Source of the DNA: Bacillota bacterium
GTDB lineage: Bacteria; Bacillota; Clostridia; Peptostreptococcales; Anaerovoracaceae
Assembly (NCBI GenBank): GCA_016284575.1
Contig: JAEEPD010000202.1
Coordinates: 1-41,504, forward strand
Direction of reading: 5' to 3'
Length of the DNA stretch: 41,504 nucleotides
The number at the start of each line of letters is the position of its first letter. Within the stretch, counting starts at the first letter, position 1. Shown here in pieces: positions 21,828 through 34,845 of this stretch. The notes beneath the pieces are model-generated. The model saw only the letters and a list, made by a program, of their open reading frames with translations. It was not told the origin of the DNA and did not search any database. The position numbers and the translations under genes are program-made.

Positions 21828-22754
21828 ATGTCAAGCATGCTTAGATTAAAGTATTTTGTGAGCCTTGCAGACAATCTGAGCTTTACCAAGGCTGCACAGG
21901 AATGCTTCATAGTACAGACTGCCATGAGCCGTCAGATAGCGGCGCTGGAGGCGGAGCTGGGAGTGCAGCTTTTCGTAAGGAATACAAGGACCGTGGAGCT
22001 TACAGAGGCGGGCAAGGAATTCTACAGCTTTGCGGTGAGCGCTCTTAATGACTACAACAGAGGTGTAGAGCGGGCCAAGATGGTCTCCGCCAGCTACGAC
22101 TGGACCCTCAAGATAGGCATAGGCCCTCAGGAGCATCTGCTGCTGGAGCCCCTGCTGTCTCAGTTCATAGAACTGTATCCGCAGACTGCGGTCATAGTTG
22201 ATCAGATGGGCTACCGGAACCTGCAGAAATACTACAGGGAGGGGGCATATGACATCATCTTAGGCCACAGAAAAAGGCTGCCGGAGTTTGATGACGCAAA
22301 CAGGATAGAGTTTCCCGGCATCAAGTGGGGCATAATCCTCTCTGAGAAGAATCCGCTGGCTGAAAAGGAAGACATCATGCCGGAGGACATGTCGGGACAG
22401 ACCTTCGTGAGCATGACCTCCATAAACATGGAGCAGTTCGAGGAGGCTGTACACCAAAGCTTCCCGGGCTCCAAGTTCATCAGCGCCAATTCCATACCGC
22501 TTAAGTACATGTTCGTGCGCATGAACATGGCCATCGCTTATATGCCCGGCTTTCTTGCCAAGGACATGCCCAGCGGCATAGTCTTCAGGGAAAGCAGCTG
22601 GATGAATGAACCCCTTAAGGATGATCTGGAATTCGACATGGTCTACAGGGTGACCGCCCACGAAAGGCGGGCCCAGGCGGAATTTATAAGGATCGCGTCG
22701 GATTATCTCACCAGCGGGGGAGACAAGCCCTGGATGCACACCCAAAGAGAGTAG
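21828..22754 (+). CDS. LysR-family transcriptional regulator
   Basis: Senses a small effector and controls neighbouring genes. The 308-residue protein has the N-terminal winged helix-turn-helix (1-60, LRLKYFVSLADNLSFTKAAQ, then a QTAMSRQIAALEAELG recognition helix) and a two-lobed effector domain (about 90-295). GAGGGGG precedes the start. It lies between the divergent dpp importer and the convergent hydrolase operon and ends at a terminator shared with the latter. I infer that it regulates both. Confidence 0.93.
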   Translation: MSSMLRLKYFVSLADNLSFTKAAQECFIVQTAMSRQIAALEAELGVQLFVRNTRTVELTEAGKEFYSFAVSALNDYNRGVERAKMVSASYDWTLKIGIGPQEHLLLEPLLSQFIELYPQTAVIVDQMGYRNLQKYYREGAYDIILGHRKRLPEFDDANRIEFPGIKWGIILSEKNPLAEKEDIMPEDMSGQTFVSMTSINMEQFEEAVHQSFPGSKFISANSIPLKYMFVRMNMAIAYMPGFLAKDMPSGIVFRESSWMNEPLKDDLEFDMVYRVTAHERRAQAEFIRIASDYLTSGGDKPWMHTQRE

Positions 22755-22801
22755 CATAAGCCAGTCGGAAGGCAGCTCCTCGCCGCGCGAAAACGCAAAA
22801 C

Positions 22802-22844
22802 AAAAGCCCCGGACCTCAGGCATTCCCTGAGTCCGGGGCTTTTT
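22802..22844. terminator. Bidirectional terminator between lysR and the hydrolase operon
   Basis: AAAAGCCCCGGA pairs with TCCGGGGCTTTT, continued by a CTCAGG/CCTGAG inner stem with one bulge. Confidence 0.9.
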
Positions 22845-22883
22845 CGGCTTTTTACTAAGGAGTAAAGCCTGTCTGTTCAGTTT

Positions 22884-23723
22884 TTATGCTTCCAGAGTGT
22901 CGCAGGTGTCGGGACGTCTGTTGTGCAGCTGACCGATGGATCTTCTAACCTCTTCGATATAGTCAAGATCGATGTCGGCATAGATGATGCCTGTGCGCTC
23001 CTGGGCTCTTGCGATAACCTTGCCCCAGGGATCAACTACCATGGATTCGCCGAAGCTTGCGGCAACGGGACCGCCGTACTGGCCGGCAGCCACCATGTAG
23101 CAGCCGTTCTCCAGAGCTCTTGCTCTGAGCAGCACTTCCCAGTGGTCCTTACCGGTGACCATGGTGAAGTTTGCGGGGTTGAACAGCAGCTGAGCTCCCA
23201 TGAGGGTCATCTTTCTGAAGAGCTCGGGGAAGCGGATGTCGTAGCAGATGGCCAGGCCAAGCTTACCAAGCTCGGTGTCAACGACTACCACCTCGCTGCC
23301 GGGCTTGCAGCGGGAGGATTCCTTTGCAACGTGGCCGCTGGGAAGGGTCACATCGAAGGGATGGATCTTGTGATATTCAGCTATGACTTCGCCCTGGGGA
23401 TCCACAACGAAGGTGGTGTTGTAGGTCCTGGGATCCTCGGGGTTCTCGGTCTGGATACCGAAGGAACCGCAGTGGATGTAAACGCCGTGCTCCTTGGCCT
23501 TCTGCTGGAAGAGCCTGAGTGTGGGGCTGTCCTCTCTGGTCTCGGGGGAGGGAGCGTTGTCGTCCTGTCCGCCTCTTCTTCTGGAAACGGCCTCGGGGAA
23601 GGAGATGAGCTTTGCGCCTCTTGCAGCGGCCTCGTCGATGGAGTCTGCAATGAACTTCCAGTTAGCCTCTCTGTCGGTGCCGGAATTGGTCTGAACCACG
23701 GCAATCATGTATTTCTTGATCAT
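22884..23723 (-). CDS. Nitrilase-superfamily carbon-nitrogen hydrolase (copy 2)
   Basis: Hydrolyses a C-N bond such as an amide or carbamoyl group. The 279-residue protein has the catalytic triad Glu44 (SFPEAV), Lys119 (EYHKIHPFD) and Cys160 (CYDIRFPEL), the last being typical of the omega-amidase/Nit branch. An insertion rich in Arg and acidic residues after Glu44 (RRRGGQDDNAPSPETRED) may shape the substrate pocket. It is the last of six genes read leftward, 18 bases after the first nitrilase, and ends at a terminator. True nitrile hydrolysis is less likely than amide hydrolysis given the motif. Confidence 0.92.
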   Translation of the reverse strand: MIKKYMIAVVQTNSGTDREANWKFIADSIDEAAARGAKLISFPEAVSRRRGGQDDNAPSPETREDSPTLRLFQQKAKEHGVYIHCGSFGIQTENPEDPRTYNTTFVVDPQGEVIAEYHKIHPFDVTLPSGHVAKESSRCKPGSEVVVVDTELGKLGLAICYDIRFPELFRKMTLMGAQLLFNPANFTMVTGKDHWEVLLRARALENGCYMVAAGQYGGPVAASFGESMVVDPWGKVIARAQERTGIIYADIDLDYIEEVRRSIGQLHNRRPDTCDTLEA

Positions 23724-23741
23724 TTTATAGCCTCTTTCTTC

Positions 23742-24581
23742 CTACTTTACCATGCCTGTGGGTTCTTTTTCGAGTCCGGGATAGACGTCAGGACGTCTGT
23801 TGGACAGGGTTCCGAGCATCATGGCGCACTGATCTGCATAATCCAGATCGATGTCGCCGTAAACGATGCAGGGCTTCTCCTGAGCTCTGGCAATTACCAG
23901 GCCCCAGGGGTCTACGATCATGGAGTTGCCGAAGCAGGGGCCGCCATACTGAGCGGCTGCGATAACGTAAGCGCTGTTCTCCAGAGCTCTGGTCCTCTGC
24001 ATAACTTCCCAGTGGTCCTTGCCGGTGGTCATCATGAAGGCTGCTGCGGTGATGAACACCTGAGCGCCCTGCATGGCCATTCTTCTGTAGAGCTCAGGGA
24101 AGCGGATGTCGTAGCAAAGGGACAGGCCGATCTTGCCCAGCTCGGTGTCGACAACGACGATCTTGTCGCCGCGGACGGTGGTCTTGGATGCGTCGAATAC
24201 TCTGCCGTCGGGGAGGACTACGTCGAAGGGATGGAGCTTGACGTACTTTGCGATCTGCTTTCCGTCAGGTCCGAACATGAAGGTTGCGGTGTTGACTCTG
24301 GTCTCTCCGGGGATCTCAAGAGGAATACTGCCGCCGACTACATAGATGCCGTGCTCCTTGGCCTTTGCAGCCAGAGTGGTGCATGCGGGACCGTCGGGTC
24401 TTTCTTCTCTCTTGACACCCTCCTGGGGCTTTCCTGCGATCAGGAAGTGCTCGGGCAGGGATACCAGCTTGGCGCCGTTCTTTGCAGCTTCATCGATGGC
24501 GTTGCAGGCGAACTCCAGGTTCTTTTCCTTGTCTGCGCCGGAGCTCATCTGAACGGCAGCGACTTTATACTGTCTGGTCAT
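23742..24581 (-). CDS. Nitrilase-superfamily carbon-nitrogen hydrolase (copy 1)
   Basis: A second amidase-type enzyme of the same length (279 aa), clearly paralogous to its downstream neighbour but diverged over most of its length. The triad is Glu44 (SLPEHFL), Lys115 (KYVKLHPFD) and Cys156 (CYDIRFPEL). Retention of two different copies suggests two amide-bond steps or two related substrates. The gene follows the RraA-like gene by 12 bases and has a GGAG site. Confidence 0.92.
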   Translation of the reverse strand: MTRQYKVAAVQMSSGADKEKNLEFACNAIDEAAKNGAKLVSLPEHFLIAGKPQEGVKREERPDGPACTTLAAKAKEHGIYVVGGSIPLEIPGETRVNTATFMFGPDGKQIAKYVKLHPFDVVLPDGRVFDASKTTVRGDKIVVVDTELGKIGLSLCYDIRFPELYRRMAMQGAQVFITAAAFMMTTGKDHWEVMQRTRALENSAYVIAAAQYGGPCFGNSMIVDPWGLVIARAQEKPCIVYGDIDLDYADQCAMMLGTLSNRRPDVYPGLEKEPTGMVK

Positions 24582-24593
24582 TTTTGTTCTCCT

Positions 24594-25292
24594 TTACTTC
24601 TTCCAGAAATCGGGAGCGAGCTCGCCGCTTCTGAGGGCATTGATGATGTCCTGGATCTTGGCTTCTTCCAGAACCTTTACGGAAGGTCTGCCGGATGCGG
24701 GCAGGGGCTGGCCGGATTCATAGGCAGCTCTCATCTTGGCTTCTCTTGCAGCCATGGCTTCTGCTCTTTCGAGCATCTCCTCATAGCCTTCAGAGGGCAT
24801 TACTACAAGGCCGTCGCAGTCGCCGAGGATGATGTCTCCGGGGTGAACAACGGCGCCGCCGCAGCAGACGTCGATCTGGGTCTCACCGGTGATGCCCCAG
24901 CAGTTGCAGGTAACGGCGGAGAGGCCGCTGCAGAATACGGGGAAGTCCTCGAAGGTGCGGATGTAAGCGGAGTCGGTGGCCATGCCGTCGATGACAAAGC
25001 CTGCCAGGCCCTTTGCTCTTGCGCCGCGGGCTACGAATTCGCCAACGGGAGCGTAGATGTCGTCCCCTGCTCTGTCGATAACGATGACGCTGCCTTCAGG
25101 TGCATCCTCAATGGCCTTGAACATGGCATAGTGGTCCTTGCCATAGGTCTTGACGGTGTATGCGGGGCCGCAGATCTTGGAGTTGGGGTTGATGGGCTTG
25201 ATCTTGGGCGCCATGAAGCGGACACCGATGAAGTGGCCGTAGGCGGCGGGATCAGTCTTCATAAATCTTGCTTTTAATTCTTCAGTCCACAT
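24594..25292 (-). CDS. RraA-like protein with altered aldolase site
   Basis: A member of the RraA/4-hydroxy-4-methyl-2-oxoglutarate aldolase fold (232 residues from the ATG at 25292). It shows the family landmarks CGPAYTVKTY, PVGEFVARGARAKGLAGFVIDG and HPGDIILGDCDGLVVMPSE. In characterised aldolases the motif after the beta strand is DGxxRD, with Arg and Asp acting on pyruvate enolate and metal. Here it is DGMATD (102-107): the Asp remains but the Arg is Thr106. Activity, if any, is therefore probably not the standard retro-aldol. The longer frame to 25340 is rejected because AAAGG and homology favour 25292. Confidence 0.85.
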   Translation of the reverse strand: MWTEELKARFMKTDPAAYGHFIGVRFMAPKIKPINPNSKICGPAYTVKTYGKDHYAMFKAIEDAPEGSVIVIDRAGDDIYAPVGEFVARGARAKGLAGFVIDGMATDSAYIRTFEDFPVFCSGLSAVTCNCWGITGETQIDVCCGGAVVHPGDIILGDCDGLVVMPSEGYEEMLERAEAMAAREAKMRAAYESGQPLPASGRPSVKVLEEAKIQDIINALRSGELAPDFWKK

Positions 25293-25367
25293 GATAATTT
25301 GCCTTTCTGTCTGCCGCATCCTCAGAAGGATGTCCGGCATGCTTTATAGTCTATTAACGATTAACGA

Positions 25368-26111
25368 TTAAGCCTTGATATCAACAGCCCATTCGTCCTT
25401 CAGGAAGCTGCAGATGCGAGCAACTGCGGCCTCGACCACTGCCTTGCCCTTCTCTGCGGTGCCAAGAGTTGCATCGCCGACGGTGGCAGAGGGAGTCTTG
25501 TCCTGCATGGGGACGAAGGTCATGATGTCGGGGTAGTTGACTACATTGGGCTCGATCTTGGTGGCCTTGCTCATGTCCACCAGGTCGGGACGGAAGTAGA
25601 GGATGACGGAGGTGCCTGCCTCAGCAGCGTGGCCGTGGCACATTCTGCCCTCGGTGTCGAAGATGCCCTTGCCAAGAGGCTGAACGAATCTCCACCAGTC
25701 AACCTGAGCCCACTTGCAGCCCTTCTGCTCCTGGTACTTGCGGGCAACATACATGATGGTGGAGTTGCTGGCGGCATGACCGGTGATGAAGAGGAACTTT
25801 CTGAAGCCGTAGTCGTAAAGCTGAGCCATCAGCTCCTCGATGTACATCTCAAACAGCTTCGGGGTGATGGTGAGGGTGCCCGGATAGGCCAGCAGCATGC
25901 TGGAATCTGCCAGGGGGAAGCAGGGAGCGATCAGGGCGTTGCACTTTTCAGCAACGAGCCTTGCTACTCCGTCTGCTGCGATGGCGTCGGAGCCCATGGG
26001 AAGATGGGTGCCGTAGATCTCGCAGGCGCCTGTGGGGATGATCACAAGATCGGTCTCCTTGCGGCGCTTGTCGAATTCGGACCAGGGCATTTCATTGATA
26101 ACGTTTGTCAT
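25368..26111 (-). CDS. Creatininase-family amidohydrolase (copy 2)
   Basis: A metal-dependent hydrolase of the creatininase fold, which opens cyclic amides or removes formyl groups. The 247-residue protein has the metal ligands in the expected order: Glu31, His36 and Asp42 (EIYGTHLPMGSD), His112 (ITGHAASN) and Glu164 (HAAEAGTS). A WW pair follows at 139-140 (AQVDWWRFV), matching the active-site Trp region. GHA replaces the common GHG. Related families include creatinine amidohydrolase, MftE and FAPy deformylase, so the substrate is not determined. Confidence 0.9.
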   Translation of the reverse strand: MTNVINEMPWSEFDKRRKETDLVIIPTGACEIYGTHLPMGSDAIAADGVARLVAEKCNALIAPCFPLADSSMLLAYPGTLTITPKLFEMYIEELMAQLYDYGFRKFLFITGHAASNSTIMYVARKYQEQKGCKWAQVDWWRFVQPLGKGIFDTEGRMCHGHAAEAGTSVILYFRPDLVDMSKATKIEPNVVNYPDIMTFVPMQDKTPSATVGDATLGTAEKGKAVVEAAVARICSFLKDEWAVDIKA

Positions 26112-26203
26112 GATTTTTCTCCTGTTATGTAAAGCTATAGGTTAACGTTATTTAAGGGACTGCAGGCTTACGCAGCTTTAATAAGGGCCCGCAGCTGCAG
26201 AAG

Positions 26204-26641
26204 CTATGCCTTTCTCAGCTCTTCAGCCTTGGCAGCGTTTCTTTCTTCCATTTCCTTCTGCTTCTGTACATACTGTGCGTAGTTGGGATTGAAGGGACGC
26301 AGATACCCGCTGCTGCCTGCGTTGTCGTTGCCGTGCTCCTTGAAGATCACGATGGAACGGCCATGATCCTCGCCCAGAGCCAGTGTGCATGCTCTTTCGA
26401 AGCCTGCGCAGATCAGGTTCTTGCCCTCCGGAGTCTTGCCGAAGGTGGTGAAGATGTAGAGGCACTGCATGTGCTTGGTCTGCTCGTCGCAGTTCTCAGC
26501 CTTGATCTCCTGGATGGAAACGAAGCTGTGGTCCATGGAAACGCCAAAGCCCTCCATGCAGGCCTTCTTGGTCTCCTGGATCAGGAGCTGCTTCTGCTCC
26601 TTGGTGTAACCTTCTACGATGTTTATGATTCCTAAAGACAT
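26204..26641 (-). CDS. Tautomerase-superfamily protein without Pro1
   Basis: A 145-residue protein with the beta-alpha-beta pattern of the 4-oxalocrotonate tautomerase/MIF superfamily: SLGIINIVEGYTKEQKQLLIQETKKA, then a second strand-helix unit (FTTFGKTPEGKNLICAGFERACTLALG). Its length fits two fused units, as in cis-CaaD-like enzymes. The superfamily's catalytic Pro1, exposed after removal of Met, is Ser here. The tail (115-145) is a charged helix. AAAGGAG precedes the start. It lies between the two creatininase genes. It may be a binding protein, a non-tautomerase enzyme, or a partner subunit; fold assignment is by pattern only. Confidence 0.65.
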   Translation of the reverse strand: MSLGIINIVEGYTKEQKQLLIQETKKACMEGFGVSMDHSFVSIQEIKAENCDEQTKHMQCLYIFTTFGKTPEGKNLICAGFERACTLALGEDHGRSIVIFKEHGNDNAGSSGYLRPFNPNYAQYVQKQKEMEERNAAKAEELRKA

Positions 26642-26659
26642 TTTGTTTCTCCTTTCAGA

Positions 26660-27400
26660 CTAGATGTCCCACTTCTTATTCATGAATTCAACGATGCGGT
26701 CCACGCACTTGTCGATTATGGCCTTGCCCTTCTCTGCGGTGCCCTTGGTGGCGTCACCGACGGTGGCGTTGGGGCTGCGGAAGTCCATGGGGAAGTACTG
26801 CATGATGTCAGGATATTCAAAGCACTGGGGATTCAGCTCCACGCGGGTCATTCTTTCCTTGACCACCAGCTCGGGACGGAGGTAGAGCATTACAGAGGTG
26901 CCTGCCTCAGAGGCGTGACCGTGAGCCATCTGGCCCTTCTCCTCGAAGATGTCCATGCCGTTGGGCTGAACGAATCTCCACCAGTCCACCTGAGCGTAAT
27001 GGATGCCGTGGGACTTGGTGTACTTGACGCCTACCTGATTGATGGGGCCTACGCTGCCGCCGTGTCCGGTGATGAAGAGCAGGTTCTTGAATCCGTACTC
27101 CACAACGAGGCACTCAACGATGTCCTCCATAACGGCCTTGAAGGTCTCGGAAGATACGGTGATGGTGCCGGGGTATGCCATAAGGGACTTGGAGTCGGAT
27201 ACGGGCATCATGGGTGCGATCAGGGCGCCGGTCTTTTCTGCGATGCGCTCTGCAACGCCCATGGCTGCGATCCCGTCCTCGCCCATGGGAAGGTGGGGTC
27301 CGTAGATCTCAACTGCTCCGGTGGGGATGATAACAGTATTGGTGTTTTTACGGCGCTCGTCGAATTCGACCCAGCTCATTTCGTCTATTCTGTAAGTCAT
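26660..27400 (-). CDS. Creatininase-family amidohydrolase (copy 1)
   Basis: First gene of the six-gene operon. The 246-residue protein aligns with copy 2 over its whole length and has all metal ligands: Glu31, His36, Asp42 (EIYGPHLPMGED), His113 (ITGHGGS) and Glu165 (HASEAGTS), plus the AQVDWWRFVQP block. This copy keeps the standard GHG. GGAGG lies directly before the start. The two copies flank the tautomerase-like gene, so they may act on related substrates or form a hetero-oligomer. Confidence 0.92.
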   Translation of the reverse strand: MTYRIDEMSWVEFDERRKNTNTVIIPTGAVEIYGPHLPMGEDGIAAMGVAERIAEKTGALIAPMMPVSDSKSLMAYPGTITVSSETFKAVMEDIVECLVVEYGFKNLLFITGHGGSVGPINQVGVKYTKSHGIHYAQVDWWRFVQPNGMDIFEEKGQMAHGHASEAGTSVMLYLRPELVVKERMTRVELNPQCFEYPDIMQYFPMDFRSPNATVGDATKGTAEKGKAIIDKCVDRIVEFMNKKWDI

Positions 27401-27638: not shown

Positions 27639-28322
27639 TCACTCTGTTTTATCGCATCTGATGGCTGTTCTGTGGCTGCCGCCCGGGGTACAGGTGAAAA
27701 GTGTCAGGTCCCAGTCGCCGAGCACATCAGTCATGTATTCTATTTCGTGAGACTCGAGGGTCTCGATCTTGCTTACCTTGTATTTGTAGTGGGTCCCGTC
27801 CACACTGCGGAAGTCGACGTCTGTACCGATGGCGGCATTGCGCAGAGGGCCGAAGTGGTTGCTGTAGTTGTGTGCGCAGATGACCAGATCCCCGCTCTTG
27901 TAGCTTCCGCTGTAGCGGCAGGGAGCGGTCTTGAGCTTGTCGTAGTCCCAGTTCTCCATAACAGGAAGAGATAGGCCGTAGGCGTCCACATCAAGGATGC
28001 CGATGTAGCGGTCTCCGTCCAGCAGGCAGATATCCATGGGTAGAAACTCCGCAGGGAGGTCCGGGTCCACGGGGAAGATCTCGTTTCCGATCAGCTGCTG
28101 GCTGTCATCTCCCGTCTGAACATAGACGCCGGCGTCGACGGTCTGGCTTACAGCCTGCCCGCTGTTGATGCGGGACGCCAGCTCGTTTCGCACAGTCAGG
28201 GAAGCCGTGCCTGCGCGGCGGTCCTCGTTCACGTTATGGACGACCAGTGTCAGGGCTGCAAGGATGAGCAGCAGGCCTATGGCAAGTATTGAATTTCCGA
28301 CAATACGTCTTGTCTTATTCAT
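27639..28322 (-). CDS. Sortase (pilus-associated, second)
   Basis: A membrane-anchored transpeptidase that joins LPXTG-type proteins to pilin or to the wall. The 227-residue protein has one N-terminal span (9-28) and the catalytic set His151 (ICAHNYSNHFG), Cys211 (TLFTCTP) and Arg218 (SHRTAIRC). It lacks the class B insertions seen in the other sortase here and looks closer to class D or A. It overlaps the upstream LPQTG pilin gene by eight bases and probably anchors the finished pilus or its minor subunit; this role is inferred from order. Confidence 0.88.
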   Translation of the reverse strand: MNKTRRIVGNSILAIGLLLILAALTLVVHNVNEDRRAGTASLTVRNELASRINSGQAVSQTVDAGVYVQTGDDSQQLIGNEIFPVDPDLPAEFLPMDICLLDGDRYIGILDVDAYGLSLPVMENWDYDKLKTAPCRYSGSYKSGDLVICAHNYSNHFGPLRNAAIGTDVDFRSVDGTHYKYKVSKIETLESHEIEYMTDVLGDWDLTLFTCTPGGSHRTAIRCDKTE

Positions 28323-29745
28323 TCTCTTTCTTCTTTCTTCTGAGCAGGAGTCCGAAAATGCTCAGGACTGTGCCGCTGCCCGCAAGAACAGGTACGGGCC
28401 ACCAGAGCTGGCCGGTCTGGGGCAGATGGGCCAGGGGGTTGCCGTTTTCATCGAGGTCCTCGTCCTCATCTACCTCTTCACCGTCATCTCCGGGGGTGCT
28501 GCTGCCGGGATCGGGACCGCCGTGTTCGGAATCATCGCTGTCTTCACTTCCCGGATCCTCGCCTCCGCCGATACCGGGATCGGTGGTAATGCTTTCAGGA
28601 GTGGTTGGAGTCTCGCCGCCGTCCAGCACATTCACGAATTCCATGATGCTGGCGCGGACGTTGTCAGAGCGGATGTAGCTCACGCTGAGGACTATCTCTC
28701 CATCCTTGGCGCGGACCGCCACATTCATTGTGTATGTTTTGGTTTCGTATTCGAATTTGGGATTGGTGCCGACATTCTCGGAAATGATGTAGCTGTAATC
28801 CTTATCCACATCCTCCAGGCCGAACTGCATCCAGCCGAACTCGACTTCGCCCTCGCCCGTAATGCTGGCCTCCATGGTGGAGCCTCGCGTTCCGTTGGGC
28901 ATGGGAGCATCAGCCTGAAGCGGCTTCATGGTGAAGACGAACACATCGCTTCCGGAGTAGGGCTTGCCGCTCTTGTCGATGATCTTCTTTCGGATGGGCG
29001 GATCCAGCTCTGCCTTGGGAGCGGGCTTGGGATTTTCTATTTTTGTGTTGGTTACAGTGTAGCGAAGTCCTGTGCTGCTTACCGAAGCCGTGTAGCCTTC
29101 GACAGGCTCCTCCGATACATTGTATGTGTATCCGGCATCCAGACCGCTGAAGGTATGTCTCCAGCCGCCTGCTGCAGTAAGAACCGCGGAATCGATCAGA
29201 CTGCCGTTCTTAAACAGATTGACTGTGATGGAGGGAGGAAGCGTATCCTCGGGGGAGACACCTGACCATACTTTACTTACATATACTTTTACGGTCTCCG
29301 GGTCCGGGTCCGGAGCGGGGGTAAAGACGTTGCTGAAATCGATATCGTCATATTTGGTCAGATCGCCGGGCTTGTAATACCCCAGATTGAAGGCCAGCTT
29401 GCCCATGACATCTTTGTAGATGTAGACTCTTGCGGTATAGATCATCCGGTCATAGGCGACTGTCGCAGTATCGGCATTCTCGACCTTGATGGTGAAATCA
29501 TAGACGCCTTCTGCGGTAAAGGTCCTTGTAAAGCTTTGCGCAGTCCCGGGAACCAGATCCAGTGTATCGAGAAGAGTATCCGTTGCATCATCTGTTAATG
29601 ACACTCTGCAGCCTACTCCGCTGCAGCTTACCGGCATATTTACATCTATGCTGCCTGCGCCATAGACCGGCCATGCGGAAAAGACCGTCAACAGCAGGCT
29701 AAGTGCCCAGATCAGGCTTGTTCGTCTAATTATCTTGTTTTTCAT
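28315..29745 (-). CDS. LPQTG surface protein/pilin with Cna-B and FctA-like domains
   Basis: A 476-residue wall-linked protein. A signal peptide (1-30, ending VYGA) is followed by an N-terminal FctA-like region, a Cna-B domain (about 150-250, VYVSKVWSGVSPEDTLPPSI) and a Spy0128/FctA-like domain (about 258-375, DVFVFTMKPL to EFVNV) of the kind that forms internal Lys-Asn isopeptide bonds. An acidic Pro/Gly/Ser-rich wall-spanning segment (about 378-435) precedes the sorting signal LPQTG (441-445), a hydrophobic segment and an RRKKKENE tail. It overlaps both neighbouring sortase genes. It is probably the tip, basal or accessory pilin. Confidence 0.88.
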   Translation of the reverse strand: MKNKIIRRTSLIWALSLLLTVFSAWPVYGAGSIDVNMPVSCSGVGCRVSLTDDATDTLLDTLDLVPGTAQSFTRTFTAEGVYDFTIKVENADTATVAYDRMIYTARVYIYKDVMGKLAFNLGYYKPGDLTKYDDIDFSNVFTPAPDPDPETVKVYVSKVWSGVSPEDTLPPSITVNLFKNGSLIDSAVLTAAGGWRHTFSGLDAGYTYNVSEEPVEGYTASVSSTGLRYTVTNTKIENPKPAPKAELDPPIRKKIIDKSGKPYSGSDVFVFTMKPLQADAPMPNGTRGSTMEASITGEGEVEFGWMQFGLEDVDKDYSYIISENVGTNPKFEYETKTYTMNVAVRAKDGEIVLSVSYIRSDNVRASIMEFVNVLDGGETPTTPESITTDPGIGGGEDPGSEDSDDSEHGGPDPGSSTPGDDGEEVDEDEDLDENGNPLAHLPQTGQLWWPVPVLAGSGTVLSIFGLLLRRKKKENE

Positions 29746-30466
29746 TGCTTCCCGTATCCTCCGTTTTGAGGGTTATGGTGCCTATTACCAGAAGTCTGTC
29801 GTTCATGCCTTCACCGTAGCACGTGGACAGAGCCAACAGAGGCAGATCTGCTTCCGGTTCTTCGTATATAAGGGCATTATCCTGAAGATAAGCCAGAACT
29901 TTCGATTTTGATGTCTTTTTTACATTGAACAGCACAGGATCCATTCCATCGCCCTTCGTTACAGCAAAGAGCCTGTAATCAAATACCTGCGATTCGGATG
30001 TTAATGTTCCTGTCTTGTGTGCTTCATAGTAATCTTTGGACAAATATTCCTCCAGCGAGCCGAACATCTTGCCGTATTCCATGTGATGTCCGTAAACCAA
30101 AGAATATTCGTCGGAAAAATCCTTTGCGTTGCCCGCATCCAGAAAGATGCTGCCGCTAAGGGAGAAGTCTCCATAAGGGTCTATATTGAGGAACTCAAAA
30201 TTGTCCTCCCCCTGCATCAGCGGATAGTCGATGTTCGTACCATCCAGCGCTATCCAGCCTGCCTGCTTGTCTGTGATCTTCTTTTCGGGAGCCAGGGGTA
30301 TGTCCAGCTCCGGTTTATAGTATAGAAGGGATTTGTCGGACGCATGCTGATAGAGATACGCATTGTCCAGTACCGAATATGTACCGATGAACATCATGAG
30401 CAGGCAAACCAGCACTAATGCCAGATCTATGATTCTGTCTATAAGTCTTATGATGCTGCCTGCCAT
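29726..30466 (-). CDS. Class B sortase, pilin polymerase
   Basis: Probably links the VPTG-type pilin subunits into a polymer. The 246-residue protein has an N-terminal span (12-31) and the class B core: WIALDGTNIDYPLMQGEDNFEFL, His127 (YGHHMEYGKMFGSL), Cys216 (LALSTCYG) and Arg224 (NDRLLVIG). In Streptococcus pyogenes FCT pili a class B sortase builds polymers of FctA through a (Q/E)VPTG signal, matching the gene next to it. The start at 30466 is chosen because the upstream extension to 30535 is low-quality sequence; AGGA precedes it. Confidence 0.9.
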   Translation of the reverse strand: MAGSIIRLIDRIIDLALVLVCLLMMFIGTYSVLDNAYLYQHASDKSLLYYKPELDIPLAPEKKITDKQAGWIALDGTNIDYPLMQGEDNFEFLNIDPYGDFSLSGSIFLDAGNAKDFSDEYSLVYGHHMEYGKMFGSLEEYLSKDYYEAHKTGTLTSESQVFDYRLFAVTKGDGMDPVLFNVKKTSKSKVLAYLQDNALIYEEPEADLPLLALSTCYGEGMNDRLLVIGTITLKTEDTGSNEKQDN

Positions 30467-30567
30467 TGTCGTCCTAAAATACCTTAATGAAATTGCAGTC
30501 CGGGCGCCCTGCCCTGCTGCGGGTCTTAGCTGCACTCAGGGAAACTCAGGCCTTAAGTGCTGCATCC

Positions 30568-30598
30568 CGGCGGAGAGAGGACCAGCCCCTCTCCGCCG
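30568..30598. promoter_or_regulatory. Stable GC hairpin between pilin and sortase genes
   Basis: A 13-bp stem with one mismatch (CGGCGGAGAGAGG against CCCCTCTCCGCCG) lies about 90 bases after the pilin stop. No T run follows on the minus strand, so it is more likely an RNA stabiliser or partial terminator that lets the pilin be expressed above the sortases. Confidence 0.6.
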
Positions 30599-30687
30599 TA
30601 ATAAATATCGCTCTTCGTCTGTTGATCTGCGGTCCTGGATGTTTGTTTATTCAGCAAGCTTCAGGACCCAAAGCACTGATTTTCTGC

Positions 30688-31800
30688 TTAATGCTGCTTT
30701 CTCTTCCTGGAGGCAAGCATGATCAGCAGACCTGCGCCGCCAATGGTGATGACGGCAATGGCAGGAGCAACTGAGAGAAGTACACCGGTGGGTACGGTAG
30801 CATCCTTGGTGTTTCTGAATAATACTTCTACAGCAGATTCACCGATACTGTGATTTCCTGTAGTCAATCCGGACACATAGTCTCCCTCACCGACGATCTT
30901 GTACTCGGAAGTATACCCAGGCTCTTCTGTTTCTGTAACATTATAGGTTGCGCCCTGAATAAGCTTGATAGAAACATCTTCATCATCCTTCAGCCAGAAC
31001 ACAACTGAAGCAGTGCCATCTGCTCCAATAGTGACAGAAGTCGGATTCGCATAGTTTGCAGGCTCACCAAAGAGGGTGGTTGCAGGGGTTCCGGGGCCAC
31101 CGGCAGTATTAACAGGTAGCGTATTGCCTGCGACTGCACTCATGCCTGAAAGATTAACAGTAAACATAAAGTACTGATCTTTTGATCCAAGAGCTCCGCG
31201 GACAAGCTTTTCGATCGTCAGCTGCGGCTCTTTTGCAGGATAGTTATCAACGATAGAGTTTATTTTTGTTGTTGAAGACAGACTTTCACTCAATCCGTAA
31301 GAGATCTCCAGATTACCACTGTTATCAACAACTCTGACCACCAGATAAAGTGTCTTTTTCTCATTTGATACCTTAGGATCTCCTGTAGCACCTGCACCGG
31401 AGGCCACTTTTTCTACTGTCCAGTAATAGATTCCCGGCTGGGTAAATGACAGAGAAGAAAGATCGATAGAAAAATCCTTCTTCAGCTTTCCATCAGCGGG
31501 CAGGGTGTCAGTAGGACCAAAAGATAATGTAGCCAAAGATGTTCCTGTAGGGAACTTTGACACATCAATGGCTCCGGCGTAAAAATAATCTACTCCGCCG
31601 TTTGAGTAGCCTGTCATATTTGATGTTGTTTTGAGCTCATAAGTAACGTTTGGTATAACGGAGCCCGCAACATGCAGCTCCTCTTGTACTGTTACAGTAC
31701 CGCCTGTAACTGCGGTGTACGCGCTTGCCGGCACAGCGCTCAGCGCGAGCAGCAGCATTGCCACAAGCACGCTTGCAAGCCTTCTTGTCTTGTTTTTCAT
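30688..31800 (-). CDS. FctA-like major pilin, VPTG sorting signal
   Basis: The probable pilus shaft subunit. The 370-residue protein starts at 31800 with CAGGAGGA in front, has a signal peptide (1-26, ending SAYA-like ASAYT) and two Spy0128/FctA-like domains: about 30-165 (VQEELHVAGSVIPNVTYELK... GLSES) and 172-335 (LTIEKLVRGALGSKDQYFMFTVNLSG... VLFRNT). The sorting signal VPTG (336-339) replaces LPXTG and is followed by a hydrophobic segment and SRKRKQH. This combination is that of streptococcal FctA/T-antigen pilins. An isopeptide network is likely but I did not place the exact residues. Confidence 0.88.
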   Translation of the reverse strand: MKNKTRRLASVLVAMLLLALSAVPASAYTAVTGGTVTVQEELHVAGSVIPNVTYELKTTSNMTGYSNGGVDYFYAGAIDVSKFPTGTSLATLSFGPTDTLPADGKLKKDFSIDLSSLSFTQPGIYYWTVEKVASGAGATGDPKVSNEKKTLYLVVRVVDNSGNLEISYGLSESLSSTTKINSIVDNYPAKEPQLTIEKLVRGALGSKDQYFMFTVNLSGMSAVAGNTLPVNTAGGPGTPATTLFGEPANYANPTSVTIGADGTASVVFWLKDDEDVSIKLIQGATYNVTETEEPGYTSEYKIVGEGDYVSGLTTGNHSIGESAVEVLFRNTKDATVPTGVLLSVAPAIAVITIGGAGLLIMLASRKRKQH

Positions 31801-32347
31801 GTTTTCCTCCTGTTGATTGAAGAGCAATAGAGTTTCTATGTTCTAAATCCGCTGTTGACGGATGATTAGACAGCTATTGGCGGACATTTGTGCTTGTCCG
31901 CCGGTCGTTCATGGTATTAATTTCGAAAAAATAGCGATAGTGATCCTACTAGTGGTCGGGCTGATGAGAGCGGGGCCGCTAGTATAAGATACTAACGCCA
32001 ATTATCCCTGTTTGGGTATGGTTGATGTATAAGTGGTTAACCTTTCGTAATCACTCCTGTTATTGTATTGGAGCTTCATGATATCGCGGAAATGAATCCT
32101 CTTCATAAAATTCGCTTTTCCTACGGGCAAATTCTACCATGTTGATAGGTAGAACGCAATATGTGTTTTTAACCATTTCGGTTAAAAAACATATATTTCT
32201 ACTATATTAGTCCTGTGTCTATGATGTTTCGTGGATAATAAGGTTTTTTTTTCACATTTTCTTCTGCTGCATTATCGCGTTAAACTGCTAACACGTTGAA
32301 ATTTCTGAAGCTGAAGACTATGCAGCCTGGGTGCGAAAACCCGTTTG
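31801..32347. promoter_or_regulatory. 547-bp regulatory gap upstream of the pilin gene
   Basis: No gene is seen. The gap is AT-rich compared with neighbours and holds several inverted repeats: GGCGGAC/GTCCGCC (31879-31902), TAGTAT-AAG-ATACTA (31980-31994), TTCTACC/GGTAGAA (32132-32154) and a nearly perfect ATATGTGTTTTTAACC-type hairpin (32159-32195), which could end transcription of the SipA-like gene. A confident promoter could not be chosen. The separation suggests that the pilin operon has its own regulated transcription. Confidence 0.6.
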
Positions 32348-33103
32348 CTACAGTCCCCGCCGCCGGATTATGTAGACGGCTTTACCCTTGACATCGTCGG
32401 TACTGATCTCGCCGAAGATGCGGCTGTCGCTGCCGTTTGTGCGAAAATCATCAAGCAGGAATAGGCCGCCCTCCCCGACGACATAGGGGTATTCCACCGA
32501 GGAATCTTCTGCCGGCTGAGTGAGGTAAAAGACCGTTTCGTTTGGAATATAATTGTCCACGACCAGCTGGCCTTCCTGAGTTATGACCACAGTGCTGCCG
32601 CCCTTGGCCACGATGCGGGAGATGCGGTTTTTGCCGCTGATGGGGTCCTGATAGAGCACGATGTCACCCACCCGGCAGGGCTCCAGCCTGTAGGTTATGA
32701 CCAGGTCTCCGTCCATGACGAAGGGGTACATGTGATTGCCGTGGTTGAGGTGCACGCCCAGGACGAATCTGCCCACGAGGAACACGGCAAGGGCGATGAC
32801 TGCGATCTTTATAAGCAGGTGAAGAAGCTCCTGCCCTACGCTGCTGCCCCCCTGTTTCGAAGCGGAGCGTTTTGCCTGATTTCCGGAGGCCGAGTGTCTG
32901 CCGGCGGAGCGGCCGGACCTGGACTTTACAGGAACTTCGGCGGAGGTTTTGCCTGCCGCAGAGCTTTGGGGCACGTCAGCGGGTTCCTTCTGGCCTGCCT
33001 TGAGTTCTTCGGGCATGTCAGCCGGAGCCGGCTGTTTTTCTCTTATTGTAACAAGGACTTCTTCTGTCCCTTTATTTTCAGTTGTTATGTTCTTATCTTC
33101 CAT
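32348..33103 (-). CDS. Signal peptidase I-like pseudo-enzyme (SipA-like pilus factor)
   Basis: A 251-residue S26-family protein. A long Ser/Lys/Pro/Glu-rich cytoplasmic region (1-92) precedes one span (95-116) and a peptidase-like domain. Aligned with the intact LepB at 6944-7477 by HSMEN and VKRIIGLPGD, the catalytic Ser becomes His124 (GNHMYPF) and the general-base Lys becomes Ser162 (RISRIVAKGG). Fold landmarks remain (VGDIVLYQDP, LDDFRTNGSDSR). In S. pyogenes FCT loci, SipA likewise lacks the Ser-Lys dyad and is needed for pilus assembly. Position next to the pilin gene supports that role here. AAAGGAC precedes the start. Confidence 0.85.
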   Translation of the reverse strand: MEDKNITTENKGTEEVLVTIREKQPAPADMPEELKAGQKEPADVPQSSAAGKTSAEVPVKSRSGRSAGRHSASGNQAKRSASKQGGSSVGQELLHLLIKIAVIALAVFLVGRFVLGVHLNHGNHMYPFVMDGDLVITYRLEPCRVGDIVLYQDPISGKNRISRIVAKGGSTVVITQEGQLVVDNYIPNETVFYLTQPAEDSSVEYPYVVGEGGLFLLDDFRTNGSDSRIFGEISTDDVKGKAVYIIRRRGL

Positions 33104-33193: not shown

Positions 33194-33952
33194 TTACGCT
33201 TCGTTGAACACTGTGATATAGGCCGAGACCGGGTTCGGGCTGAGCATGGTCCATCTCGGAGCCGGGTCCAGAGTGTAGCCGTCCCGCACCTGCCAGAAGC
33301 GGAATGACTTGCCGGAGCCGGTCATTTTAAACTCGGCGCTGCCGCAGCAGACCACGCTGTGATTGAAATAGCCCCCCGCATCTGAGTACCAGATGTTCAG
33401 AAGGAAGGGCCTGCCGGCAGCCAGCTCCCTGAGGCCGCGGCTGCGGGAGAAGCTGTTGACGGCGATGAGAGGGAGGCTGAGGCTCCGGATGCAGAGCCTG
33501 GAAAAGAAAGTATAGTCGATGTTGTCCAGGGTGAAGTCTCCAAGGGAGGGCGCCGGATCCAGCTTTTCCCGGAAGATCTGCATGATGCGGGGCGCCAGGG
33601 CTTCTGCGGTGACGTTGCCCGGGGCGGGCCTTGAGCTGCCAGCGCTCAGGGCAGAGCCTGCGGTGACGGCGCTCGGAGCAGAGCCTGCGGTGATGGCGAC
33701 CGGACCGGACTCTGAGCTGCTGGCCAGTCCTGCCGCGCCGCCCTCCCGCGCCTGAAGCCGGTTCATGTGAAAAGCCAGCATCGAGGATATCCCATACAGG
33801 GCGCAGGCGTTGGTCTCGAAAATGTAGTAAGGCGGAACCCTGTCCGCCAGCGATACCTGCGATTGCAGTTCAAAGGAGCGTCCCGGGTACTTAGCCTCCA
33901 GGAAGCTTACAGGGTCCTCTATTCTGTTTGCCGGCGTATCTCTGAACAGCAA
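33194..33952 (-). CDS. Papain-like cysteine-peptidase-fold candidate
   Basis: A 252-residue cytoplasmic protein with a possible C39-type triad in order: Cys50 (FETNACALYGISSML), His198 (GGYFNHSVVCCGSAEF) and Asp224 (WQVRDGYT). No signal peptide is visible. Residues 70-112 are a low-complexity Ala/Ser/Gly insertion with an imperfect repeat (TAGSAPSAV, TAGSALSAG). The start codon is TTG at 33952, supported by GGAAGG. It lies upstream of the pilus genes in the same direction. It may process a surface protein or be an inactive relative; the fold is a pattern-based inference. Confidence 0.55.
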   Translation of the reverse strand: MLFRDTPANRIEDPVSFLEAKYPGRSFELQSQVSLADRVPPYYIFETNACALYGISSMLAFHMNRLQAREGGAAGLASSSESGPVAITAGSAPSAVTAGSALSAGSSRPAPGNVTAEALAPRIMQIFREKLDPAPSLGDFTLDNIDYTFFSRLCIRSLSLPLIAVNSFSRSRGLRELAAGRPFLLNIWYSDAGGYFNHSVVCCGSAEFKMTGSGKSFRFWQVRDGYTLDPAPRWTMLSPNPVSAYITVFNEA

Positions 33953-34041: not shown

Positions 34042-34845
34042 CTACAGCAAATAGTACTCGGCGACCTGTTTAATCTTTCCGCTCGTGAGCGGCTGCTGCT
34101 GATTTTCAAGCGTAATGATCAGTCCCTTCCCGGGGAAAAGCCCGTCCCTGGCATATCGATCCATTTTGTACATAAATGAATTCTGTACATACTCCGGGTC
34201 ATCCATACGGCCGAAATGCTCCCAGTAATAGATTTCGCCGGAGCGGCTGATAACTGTAAAGTCCGGGGTCGAGCTTCCGGTGGAGTAATTGAAGTAATAT
34301 GCCTGCTCATATGTGTAATACAGGCCATGCTCGTAAAGAAAATCCGCAATGAGAAGCTCGGACTTGGAGCGTACGAATTCACCCCGCCTTGTCTGAAAAA
34401 GGAGACCCTCCTGGTGGGAGGAAAAGCCCTGCGGTGCGGGCGTATCCCAGGTATCATCTGCCCAGACATCTATCTCTGAAAGAGGTCCGAGCAGCCGCCT
34501 TCGGCCCGGGCTGAGAGAGCGATACGCATCAGTGAGGGCTTCAGGTTTATATTGATTCAGGAAACGGTGGATCGCATTGCGTTCCTCTTTAGCCAGTCGG
34601 AGCGTTTTTTCTGCGTAGTCTTTTTCCGCCAGACGCGCGGCTAAGGCTTCATCGCTGCTCCGGATGTATTTGGAGACGGTTTTCCCGTCTTTGTTTCTTC
34701 GGAGTTTATAGTAATGCCAGCTGCCGTTTTTAATCTGTCTGCATCTTAATGCACCGCCCGGGGCTTTTCTTATGATTCCGCTGCAGATCTGGATGACAGT
34801 ATTCAGCTGCGCCTCTCTGCGTAGAAGATCATCTCTGATTTTCAT
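34042..34845 (-). CDS. PD-(D/E)XK nuclease-like protein
   Basis: A 267-residue protein with a basic, helical N-terminal half (about 1-125) and a C-terminal restriction-endonuclease-like core: RSKSELLIADFLYEHGL (Glu near 162), STPDFTVI (Asp195) and EIYYWEHFGR (Glu209, His210). The Asp...Glu-x-His spacing fits PD-(D/E)XK folds, and this group is widespread as hypothetical proteins in Clostridia. AAAGGAAAG precedes the start. No methylase or defence gene lies beside it, so it is not part of an obvious restriction system. Confidence 0.7.
   Translation of the reverse strand: MKIRDDLLRREAQLNTVIQICSGIIRKAPGGALRCRQIKNGSWHYYKLRRNKDGKTVSKYIRSSDEALAARLAEKDYAEKTLRLAKEERNAIHRFLNQYKPEALTDAYRSLSPGRRRLLGPLSEIDVWADDTWDTPAPQGFSSHQEGLLFQTRRGEFVRSKSELLIADFLYEHGLYYTYEQAYYFNYSTGSSTPDFTVISRSGEIYYWEHFGRMDDPEYVQNSFMYKMDRYARDGLFPGKGLIITLENQQQPLTSGKIKQVAEYYLL

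What the first reader, a model, noticed from the sequence alone, without database searches (positions are those of the whole stretch)
27639..33103. FCT-like sortase pilus locus in a Clostridia-type genome
The order SipA-like, VPTG FctA-like pilin, class B sortase, Cna-B/FctA LPQTG pilin, second sortase parallels the S. pyogenes FCT region. Two different sorting signals (VPTG and LPQTG) pair with two different sortases, implying separate polymerisation and anchoring steps.
Basis: partly seen in the sequence, partly recalled or inferred. Interest (0 to 1): 0.6.

Follow-up and report, generated by a model that had tools for sequence, protein, structure and literature searches.

The report
FCT-type pilus operon with swapped anchor

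Summary
Five intact minus-strand ORFs at 27639-33103 encode a SipA-type pseudo-signal peptidase, a Spy0128/FctA-like VPTG pilin, a class B sortase, an LPQTG base pilin and a second sortase. The FCT comparison holds. The class B sortase falls in one supported clade with S. pyogenes Spy0129 (99/93), outside S. aureus and Listeria SrtB. SipA has lost both catalytic residues. The shaft pilin matches Spy0128 along its length. Such loci are common in rumen and gut Clostridia, and one is experimentally known in C. perfringens (VR-10B).

The fifth gene does not come from an FCT locus. Its family (here srt2) is otherwise the last gene of class C pilus operons, next to a base pilin ending LPQTGxLWWPV. 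The window's srt2 is sister to the srt2 of this genome's own class C pilus. The base pilin is a domain chimera: FctB-like N-domain, class-C-type Cna_B domain and tail. Among class B loci, LPQTG base pilins occur only where srt2 is present (4/4 versus 0/38). Best reading: SrtB polymerises the VPTG shaft and srt2 anchors the LPQTG base. In a congener base pilin and srt2 are fused, and that genome shows no third sortase. New variant of a known kind; function inferred, untested.

The parts
32348..33103 (-). SipA/LepA-like pseudo-signal peptidase; the SPase I Ser position is His and the Lys position is Ser
   Evidence: Best PDB hits SipA 4n31 (3.9e-21) and LepA 4k8w (5.2e-19), far above real SPase I 4me8 (0.022); residues at the dyad positions H and S, and no SipA next to a class B pilus sortase keeps both Ser and Lys
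31801..32347 (-). AT-rich intergenic gap (GC 0.40) with inverted repeats at 32158-32197 and 32132-32154; possible regulatory or terminator region ahead of fctA
   Evidence: function not tested
30688..31800 (-). FctA/Spy0128-like shaft pilin, 370 aa, signal peptide, two Ig-like domains, ATVPTG sorting signal, C-terminal TM and basic tail; K179 is the candidate inter-subunit linking lysine; C-domain isopeptide triad K198/E290/N330; N-domain triad positions read E40/K131/D185
   Evidence: Family profile vs 3b2m 2.2e-37, 8f70 1.2e-61; AF2 pLDDT 85, Foldseek best 3gle/3b2m about 1e-18; residues from alignment with Spy0128
29726..30466 (-). class B pilus sortase (predicted shaft polymerase), start probably the ATG at 30466; N-terminal TM, catalytic Cys in LSTC
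   Evidence: Best PDB 3psq, Spy0129 (8.7e-32; family profile 6.9e-47); clade with Spy0129 99/93
28315..29745 (-). LPQTG base pilin, 476 aa: FctB-like N domain (25-150), Cna_B (155-234), FctA domain (264-373), disordered stalk, LPQTGQLWWPVP + TM; invariant K131 (first-row position 107 of alignment A5) is the candidate acceptor lysine
   Evidence: Pfam; domain-wise origin test; N domain vs FctB 3klq 1.1e-11; AF2 model vs FctB-iso 5ttd rmsd 1.6 over 119 columns
27639..28322 (-). srt2: second sortase, single N-terminal TM, LTLFTC active-site Cys, no C-terminal TM; predicted dedicated wall-anchoring sortase; overlaps the base pilin gene by 8 nt
   Evidence: Pfam Sortase 7.2e-14; no NCBIfam class cut-off met; 34/34 unfused family members have an N-TM only, against 21/24 class C sortases with N- and C-TM; sister to the class-C-locus srt2 of the same genome, 100/99

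Best explanation
The locus encodes a sortase-assembled pilus of the S. pyogenes FCT-2/3/4 class B type whose anchoring end has been replaced by the anchoring cassette of a class C pilus. Proposed mechanism: the catalytically dead SipA acts as assembly chaperone. The class B sortase cleaves ATVPT|G of the FctA-like shaft pilin and joins the Thr to a lysine (predicted K179) of the next pilin, and finally to a lysine (predicted K131) of the FctB-like N domain of the base pilin, which stops growth. The base pilin's LPQTGQLWWPV signal is then cleaved by the adjacent srt2 sortase, which joins the pilus to peptidoglycan precursor in place of a housekeeping SrtA. The base pilin is thus an adaptor: its N domain fits the class B shaft, its tail fits srt2. 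Shown here: genes, homology, phylogeny, loss of the SipA dyad, chimeric base pilin, and co-occurrence of the LPQTGxLWWP signal with srt2. Inferred: every catalytic step, the linking lysines, and that pili are made.
For: (1) SrtB in one clade with Spy0129, 99/93; S. aureus and Listeria SrtB outside, 98/80. (2) SipA nearest to SipA/LepA of S. pyogenes; dyad Ser->His, Lys->Ser. (3) Shaft pilin family profile matches Spy0128 over its length, 2.2e-37; AF2 model best hits Spy0128. (4) Base pilin N domain hits only class B-locus base pilins among its best hits; its Cna_B domain hits almost only srt2-bearing, mostly class C, loci; its tail hits only srt2-bearing loci. (5) LPQTG base pilins in class B loci: 4/4 with srt2, 0/38 without, Fisher 8.9e-6, not corrected for phylogeny. 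(6) Coding signature PQTGxLWWP in 16 of 351 family genomes, 15 of them among the 34 with srt2 (1.5 expected; hypergeometric 3e-16, not phylogeny-corrected; reversed-pattern control shows none in the listed rows). (7) Congener G126 (96% complete) has two detectable sortases, SrtB and an srt2 fused to its LPQTG base pilin; G049 (96%) has a class C and an srt2 only. (8) The only four sortases found in this genome are these two plus a class C and an srt2 at C197. (9) A second VPTG protein, 1272 aa with two DUF7601 domains and SVPTG, lies on C39, a tip adhesin candidate.
Against: No tip adhesin (cpa) gene is adjacent, unlike many related loci in the same family. The genome is 84% complete, so a missed housekeeping sortase is possible. 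srt2 activity and class are unknown; its profile is closest in the PDB to a class C sortase (1e-15), then to several class A/C/D entries. Inverted repeats between sipA and fctA could split the operon. One genome (G244, 67% complete) has the signal but no detected srt2. In G265 two LPQTGxLWWP genes lie 12-22 kb from srt2. Expression and pili are unproven.
Confidence: 0.78

Rival explanations
1. srt2 is a second pilin polymerase or base-loading enzyme (like the extra sortases of multi-sortase class C pili) that adds the base pilin to the shaft, and wall anchoring is done by an undetected housekeeping sortase.
For: srt2 is distantly class C-like (best PDB profile hit a class C sortase, 1e-15) and pilus-linked.
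Against: srt2 lacks the C-terminal TM found in 21 of 24 class C sortases. G126 and G049, both 96% complete, have no further detectable sortase to do the anchoring. In class B loci srt2 goes with a change of the base pilin's sorting signal, not of the shaft signal.
Confidence: 0.13
2. Ordinary FCT-like pilus with no special division: the class B sortase handles both VPTG and LPQTG, and srt2 is a bystander kept by operon drift.
For: S. pyogenes Spy0129 joins tip, shaft and base with one enzyme (PMC3019223).
Against: srt2 co-occurs with the LPQTGxLWWPV signal across class B and class C operons, overlaps the base pilin gene here and is fused to it in G126 and G128. In S. pyogenes too the base LPXTG is a substrate of another sortase, SrtA (PMC7900414).
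Confidence: 0.06
3. The neighbourhood is a cryptic or decaying locus, or a contig chimera, and no such pilus is built.
For: Draft genome in 261 contigs; no adjacent adhesin; lower GC in fctA and srtB (0.46-0.47).
Against: All ORFs are intact with catalytic Cys and sorting signals. The same order sipA-fctA-srtB-base-srt2 occurs in independent assemblies L120 and L121 and, fused, in L119. The base pilin chimera lies within one ORF and is shared with L120.
Confidence: 0.03

Closest known systems
S. pyogenes FCT-2/3/4 pilus locus (cpa-sipA-fctA-srtC-fctB)
   Same: Order sipA-fctA-class B sortase-base pilin; dead SipA; Spy0128-like VPTG shaft pilin; FctB-like N domain in the base pilin; canonical LPXTG on the base
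   Different: No adjacent cpa; an extra dedicated sortase instead of reliance on SrtA; base pilin enlarged by Cna_B and FctA domains with a class-C-type tail; N-domain isopeptide triad of the shaft pilin altered
C. perfringens VR-10B pilus (CnaA, signal peptidase, FimA, class B sortase, FimB)
   Same: Clostridial FCT-like class B pilus; pili shown by EM and ladders (PMC8088525)
   Different: FimB carries a sortase-B-type signal and a second class B sortase lies nearby, rather than an LPQTG tail and srt2
FCT-like loci of rumen/gut Clostridia with a second class B sortase (L118, L123-L127, L140 and others)
   Same: Same polymerising core plus a second sortase in the locus
   Different: Their second sortase is class B and their base pilins mostly carry [NTQKSR]P[KRQ]T[GSN]; here srt2 and LPQTG
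Class C pilus operons with LPQTG base pilin + srt2 (this genome C197; L085, L087, L090, L097 and others)
   Same: Base pilin Cna_B and/or FctA domain, LPQTGxLWWPV tail, and the srt2 sortase
   Different: Shaft polymerised by a class C sortase on LPxTG pilins; base pilin N domain not FctB-like

Membership tests
FCT-2/3/4-type class B pilus locus | Gene order sipA-fctA-srtC(class B)-fctB | tested here: met
   literature order from PMC4049620
FCT-2/3/4-type class B pilus locus | cpa (tip adhesin) at the start of the operon | tested here: not met
   Genes upstream of sipA have no Pfam match or are addB; an SVPTG adhesin candidate lies on C39 instead
FCT-2/3/4-type class B pilus locus | Polymerase in the Spy0129 clade of class B sortases | tested here: met
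   Tree, 99/93 support
FCT-2/3/4-type class B pilus locus | SipA lacks the Ser-Lys dyad | tested here: met
   H and S at the two positions
FCT-2/3/4-type class B pilus locus | Major pilin homologous to Spy0128/FctA with a VPTG-type signal | tested here: met
   Family profile 2.2e-37 to 3b2m; Foldseek best hits Spy0128, about 1e-18
FCT-2/3/4-type class B pilus locus | Both intramolecular Lys-Asn isopeptide triads of FctA | tested here: not met
   C-domain triad K/E/N kept; N-domain positions read E/K/D
FCT-2/3/4-type class B pilus locus | Anchoring by housekeeping SrtA, no second sortase in the locus | tested here: not met
   srt2 in the locus; no class A sortase recognised among the four PF04203 hits of the 84% complete genome
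FCT-2/3/4-type class B pilus locus | RofA/Nra regulator adjacent | tested here: not met
   Neighbours tested are a creatininase/nitrilase cluster, two ORFs without Pfam match, addB; the only regulator seen is a LysR at 21828-22754
FCT-2/3/4-type class B pilus locus | SDS-resistant pilin ladder / pili by EM | not testable with these tools
   wet-lab only
Class C sortase (NF033745) | Model cut-off and N- plus C-terminal TM (for srt2) | tested here: not met
   27.6 bits vs cut-off 160; no C-TM in 34/34
Housekeeping class A sortase (for srt2) | Monophyly with SrtA | tested here: inconclusive
   Weak PDB hits to class A (6e-5); no tree with reference class A/D/E sequences was built

The most novel reading that the evidence does not exclude
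srt2 is an unclassified sortase subfamily devoted to pilus anchoring. It reads an extended signal LPQTGxLWWPV and travels with the base-pilin tail as a cassette that can be attached to either a class B or a class C shaft. In some species base pilin and sortase have become one polypeptide that would anchor itself. Alongside this, shaft pilins of the srt2-bearing class B loci carry a Lys/Glu-exchanged, Asp-using N-domain triad (E/K/D) that may form a Lys-Asp isopeptide with swapped strands.
Probability: 0.5. Interest if true: 0.65.

Novelty: new variant of a known kind. Interest (0 to 1): 0.5.

Why it matters
Gram-positive pili are usually described as a pilus-specific polymerase plus a generic housekeeping anchor. 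Here the anchoring step has its own enzyme and signal, and that cassette is shared between pili built by two different polymerase classes. This gives a natural test of which base-pilin features the polymerase reads (N domain) and which the anchor sortase reads (tail). The pilin-sortase fusion in a congener makes substrate assignment directly testable, and LPQTGxLWWPV offers a candidate orthogonal sortase tag.

Tried and rejected
Rejected: srt2 as a second class B sortase (no SrtB model hit; other Clostridia do use a second class B there). Rejected: a misassembly explanation for the mosaic, since L120 and L121 share it. Rejected: GC difference as proof of transfer; fctA and srtB are AT-richer (0.46-0.47), but so are the class C pilin (0.483) and the C39 adhesin (0.462), while G126's copies are not, so it may reflect pilin composition or recent acquisition. 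Led nowhere: single-sequence PDB search with the shaft pilin (no hit; the family profile was needed); Rfam scan of the window (no match); plasmid tblastn with SrtB (only distant class B hits); paper searches for FCT-like pili in Clostridia with FctA (none) and for swapped Lys/Glu isopeptides (none relevant). In G067 the fused protein has only one evident TM between signal and sortase, which would put the sortase on the wrong side of the membrane; left unexplained.
Full report
WHAT IS THERE. On the minus strand the window carries, 5' to 3', a SipA-like protein (33103-32348), a VPTG shaft pilin (ATG at 31800 to 30688), a class B sortase (ATG at 30466, or GTG at 30535, to 29726), an LPQTG base pilin (29745-28315) and a second sortase, called srt2 here (28322-27639). 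The last two overlap by 8 nt. Pfam and NCBIfam confirm each assignment. Upstream lie two ORFs without Pfam match and addB. Downstream lies a creatininase / nitrilase / RraA cluster. Neither flank is pilus-related. The host is an uncultured draft genome, 84% complete. Congener G126 appears to be a goat abomasum MAG: locus L119, on a contig of the same length (61,795 bases) and with the same genes. The sortase's nearest named relatives are Oscillospiraceae/Clostridia MAGs.

FCT PARALLEL. SipA's best solved relatives are S. pyogenes SipA 4n31 and LepA 4k8w (3.9e-21, 5.2e-19); a real signal peptidase scores 0.022. The catalytic Ser and Lys positions are His and Ser. No SipA next to a class B pilus sortase in my set keeps both Ser and Lys; the two SK rows in those loci are separate, canonical signal peptidases. 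S. pyogenes SipA is likewise inactive yet needed for polymerisation (PMC4049620). The class B sortase's best solved relative is Spy0129, 3psq (8.7e-32). In a tree of 121 sequences the sortases adjacent to sipA+fctA form one group with Spy0129 (99/93), outside S. aureus and Listeria SrtB (98/80). A profile of 48 shaft pilins matches Spy0128 (3b2m, 2.2e-37) and other T antigens. The AF2 model (pLDDT 85) finds Spy0128 structures first.

SHAFT PILIN DETAIL. Aligned to Spy0128, the C-domain isopeptide triad is intact (K198, E290, N330). The N-domain triad K36/E117/N168 reads E40/K131/D185 here. The same E/K/D set occurs in exactly three other pilins of the 48: L036, L120 and L121. These are the other class B loci with srt2; one close relative reads HKD, another HSD. 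Lys and Glu have exchanged places and Asn has become Asp. Whether a Lys-Asp bond forms is untested. A lysine 4-8 residues before the Asn/Asp column, where Spy0128 has its linking K161, is present in 45 of 48; here it is K179.

THE SECOND SORTASE IS NOT FCT. S. pyogenes FCT-2/3/4 has one sortase and uses SrtA for anchoring (PMC7900414). srt2 relatives occur in 34 of 351 family genomes. In the fetched loci of that search that also contain another sortase, srt2 lies in a class C pilus operon, as a rule as its last gene: adhesin, LPxTG pilin, class C sortase, LPQTG base pilin, srt2. This genome has such an operon on contig C197 (class C sortase 275.8 bits to NF033745). The window's srt2 is sister to the C197 srt2 (100/99, about 50% identity). 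srt2 in class B loci does not form one group; starred branches force at least two changes. Among 79 named loci with the class B core, an srt2 adjoins it only in L119 (=G126), L120 and L121. Elsewhere there is either a second class B sortase or none.

THE BASE PILIN IS A CHIMERA. Searched domain by domain against all genes of the fetched loci, residues 25-150 hit only base pilins of class B loci. The Cna_B domain hits almost only base pilins of srt2-bearing loci, mostly class C. The FctA domain is mixed. The tail hits only srt2-bearing loci. The N-domain profile matches FctB 3klq (1.1e-11) with an invariant lysine near FctB's GDEEK segment. The AF2 model superposes that domain on FctB (5ttd, 1.6 A over 119 columns).

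SIGNAL AND ENZYME CO-OCCUR. Class B loci with srt2 have LPQTG base pilins 4/4. Class B loci without srt2 and with a readable xPxTx signal have none in 38, counted by hand (Fisher 8.9e-6). Those loci carry mostly polar signals such as NPKTS, TPKTG or RPQTG. srt2-linked unfused base pilins mostly extend to LPQTGxLWWPVP. The coding pattern for PQTGxLWWP is in 16 of 351 family genomes, 15 of them srt2-positive, 1.5 expected, p 3e-16; the reversed-pattern control gives none in the listed rows. These probabilities ignore shared ancestry and should be read as strong association only. The exception G244 is 67% complete.

FUSION. In G126 the LPQTG base pilin and srt2 are one 612-aa ORF: LPQTG, TM, basic loop, TM, sortase, with no ATG/GTG/TTG start for the sortase between LPQTG and the second TM. 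G128 has a similar two-TM fusion in a class C locus. The WWPV extension is absent in both. G126 (96% complete) has no third PF04203 sortase. A simple reading is that srt2 acts on the protein it is fused to, and that it anchors.

MECHANISM AND LIMITS. I propose SrtB for polymerisation and base attachment, srt2 for wall anchoring, and SipA as chaperone. The tip protein may be the 1272-aa SVPTG protein on C39. Every catalytic step is inference. The novelty lies in the exchange of the anchoring module, the fusion, and the altered triad, not in the existence of an FCT-like pilus in Clostridia, which is known from C. perfringens VR-10B (PMC8088525). That locus has a class B base signal and a second class B sortase, matching the more common clostridial arrangement seen here.

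Noticed in passing
L036:8804-10642 (G126), L102:3628-5253 (G128), L104:3168-4535 (G067): Base pilin and srt2-type sortase fused in one ORF. Two fusions have a two-TM hairpin consistent with an extracellular sortase; the G067 one has only one evident TM, which is topologically puzzling.
   Followed up: partly
window 30688-31800 (residues E40, K131, D185); L036, L120, L121 shaft pilins: N-domain isopeptide triad positions read E/K/D instead of K/E/N, only in pilins of srt2-bearing class B loci.
   Followed up: partly
L118, L123-L127, L129, L131, L140 and others: Many clostridial FCT-like loci carry a second class B sortase of a separate clade (100/87), together with NPKTS/TPKTG-type base pilins; probable anchoring enzymes of another kind.
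   Followed up: partly
L215:3596-7414 (genome contig C39) and L216:1-8152 (C220): Large DUF7601 surface proteins elsewhere in the genome: 1272 aa with SVPTG signal, and at least 2717 aa with FctA, Cna_B and LRR domains, running off the contig end.
   Followed up: partly
window 32132-32197: Adjacent inverted repeats (9-nt perfect arms within a longer hairpin, plus 7-nt arms) in the AT-rich gap between sipA and fctA.
   Followed up: no
window 21828-27400: Cluster of two creatininase-family, two carbon-nitrogen hydrolase, one RraA-like and one tautomerase-like gene with a divergent LysR regulator; looks like an amide/purine-type catabolic operon.
   Followed up: no
window 33194-33952 and 34042-34845: Two ORFs (252 and 267 aa) upstream of sipA without Pfam or NCBIfam match; the second reads by eye like a PD-(D/E)XK-type nuclease.
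   Followed up: no
L236 (G265:C1:103000-121000): Two further LPQTGxLWWP proteins 12-22 kb from the single detected srt2, which would have to serve them in trans.
   Followed up: no
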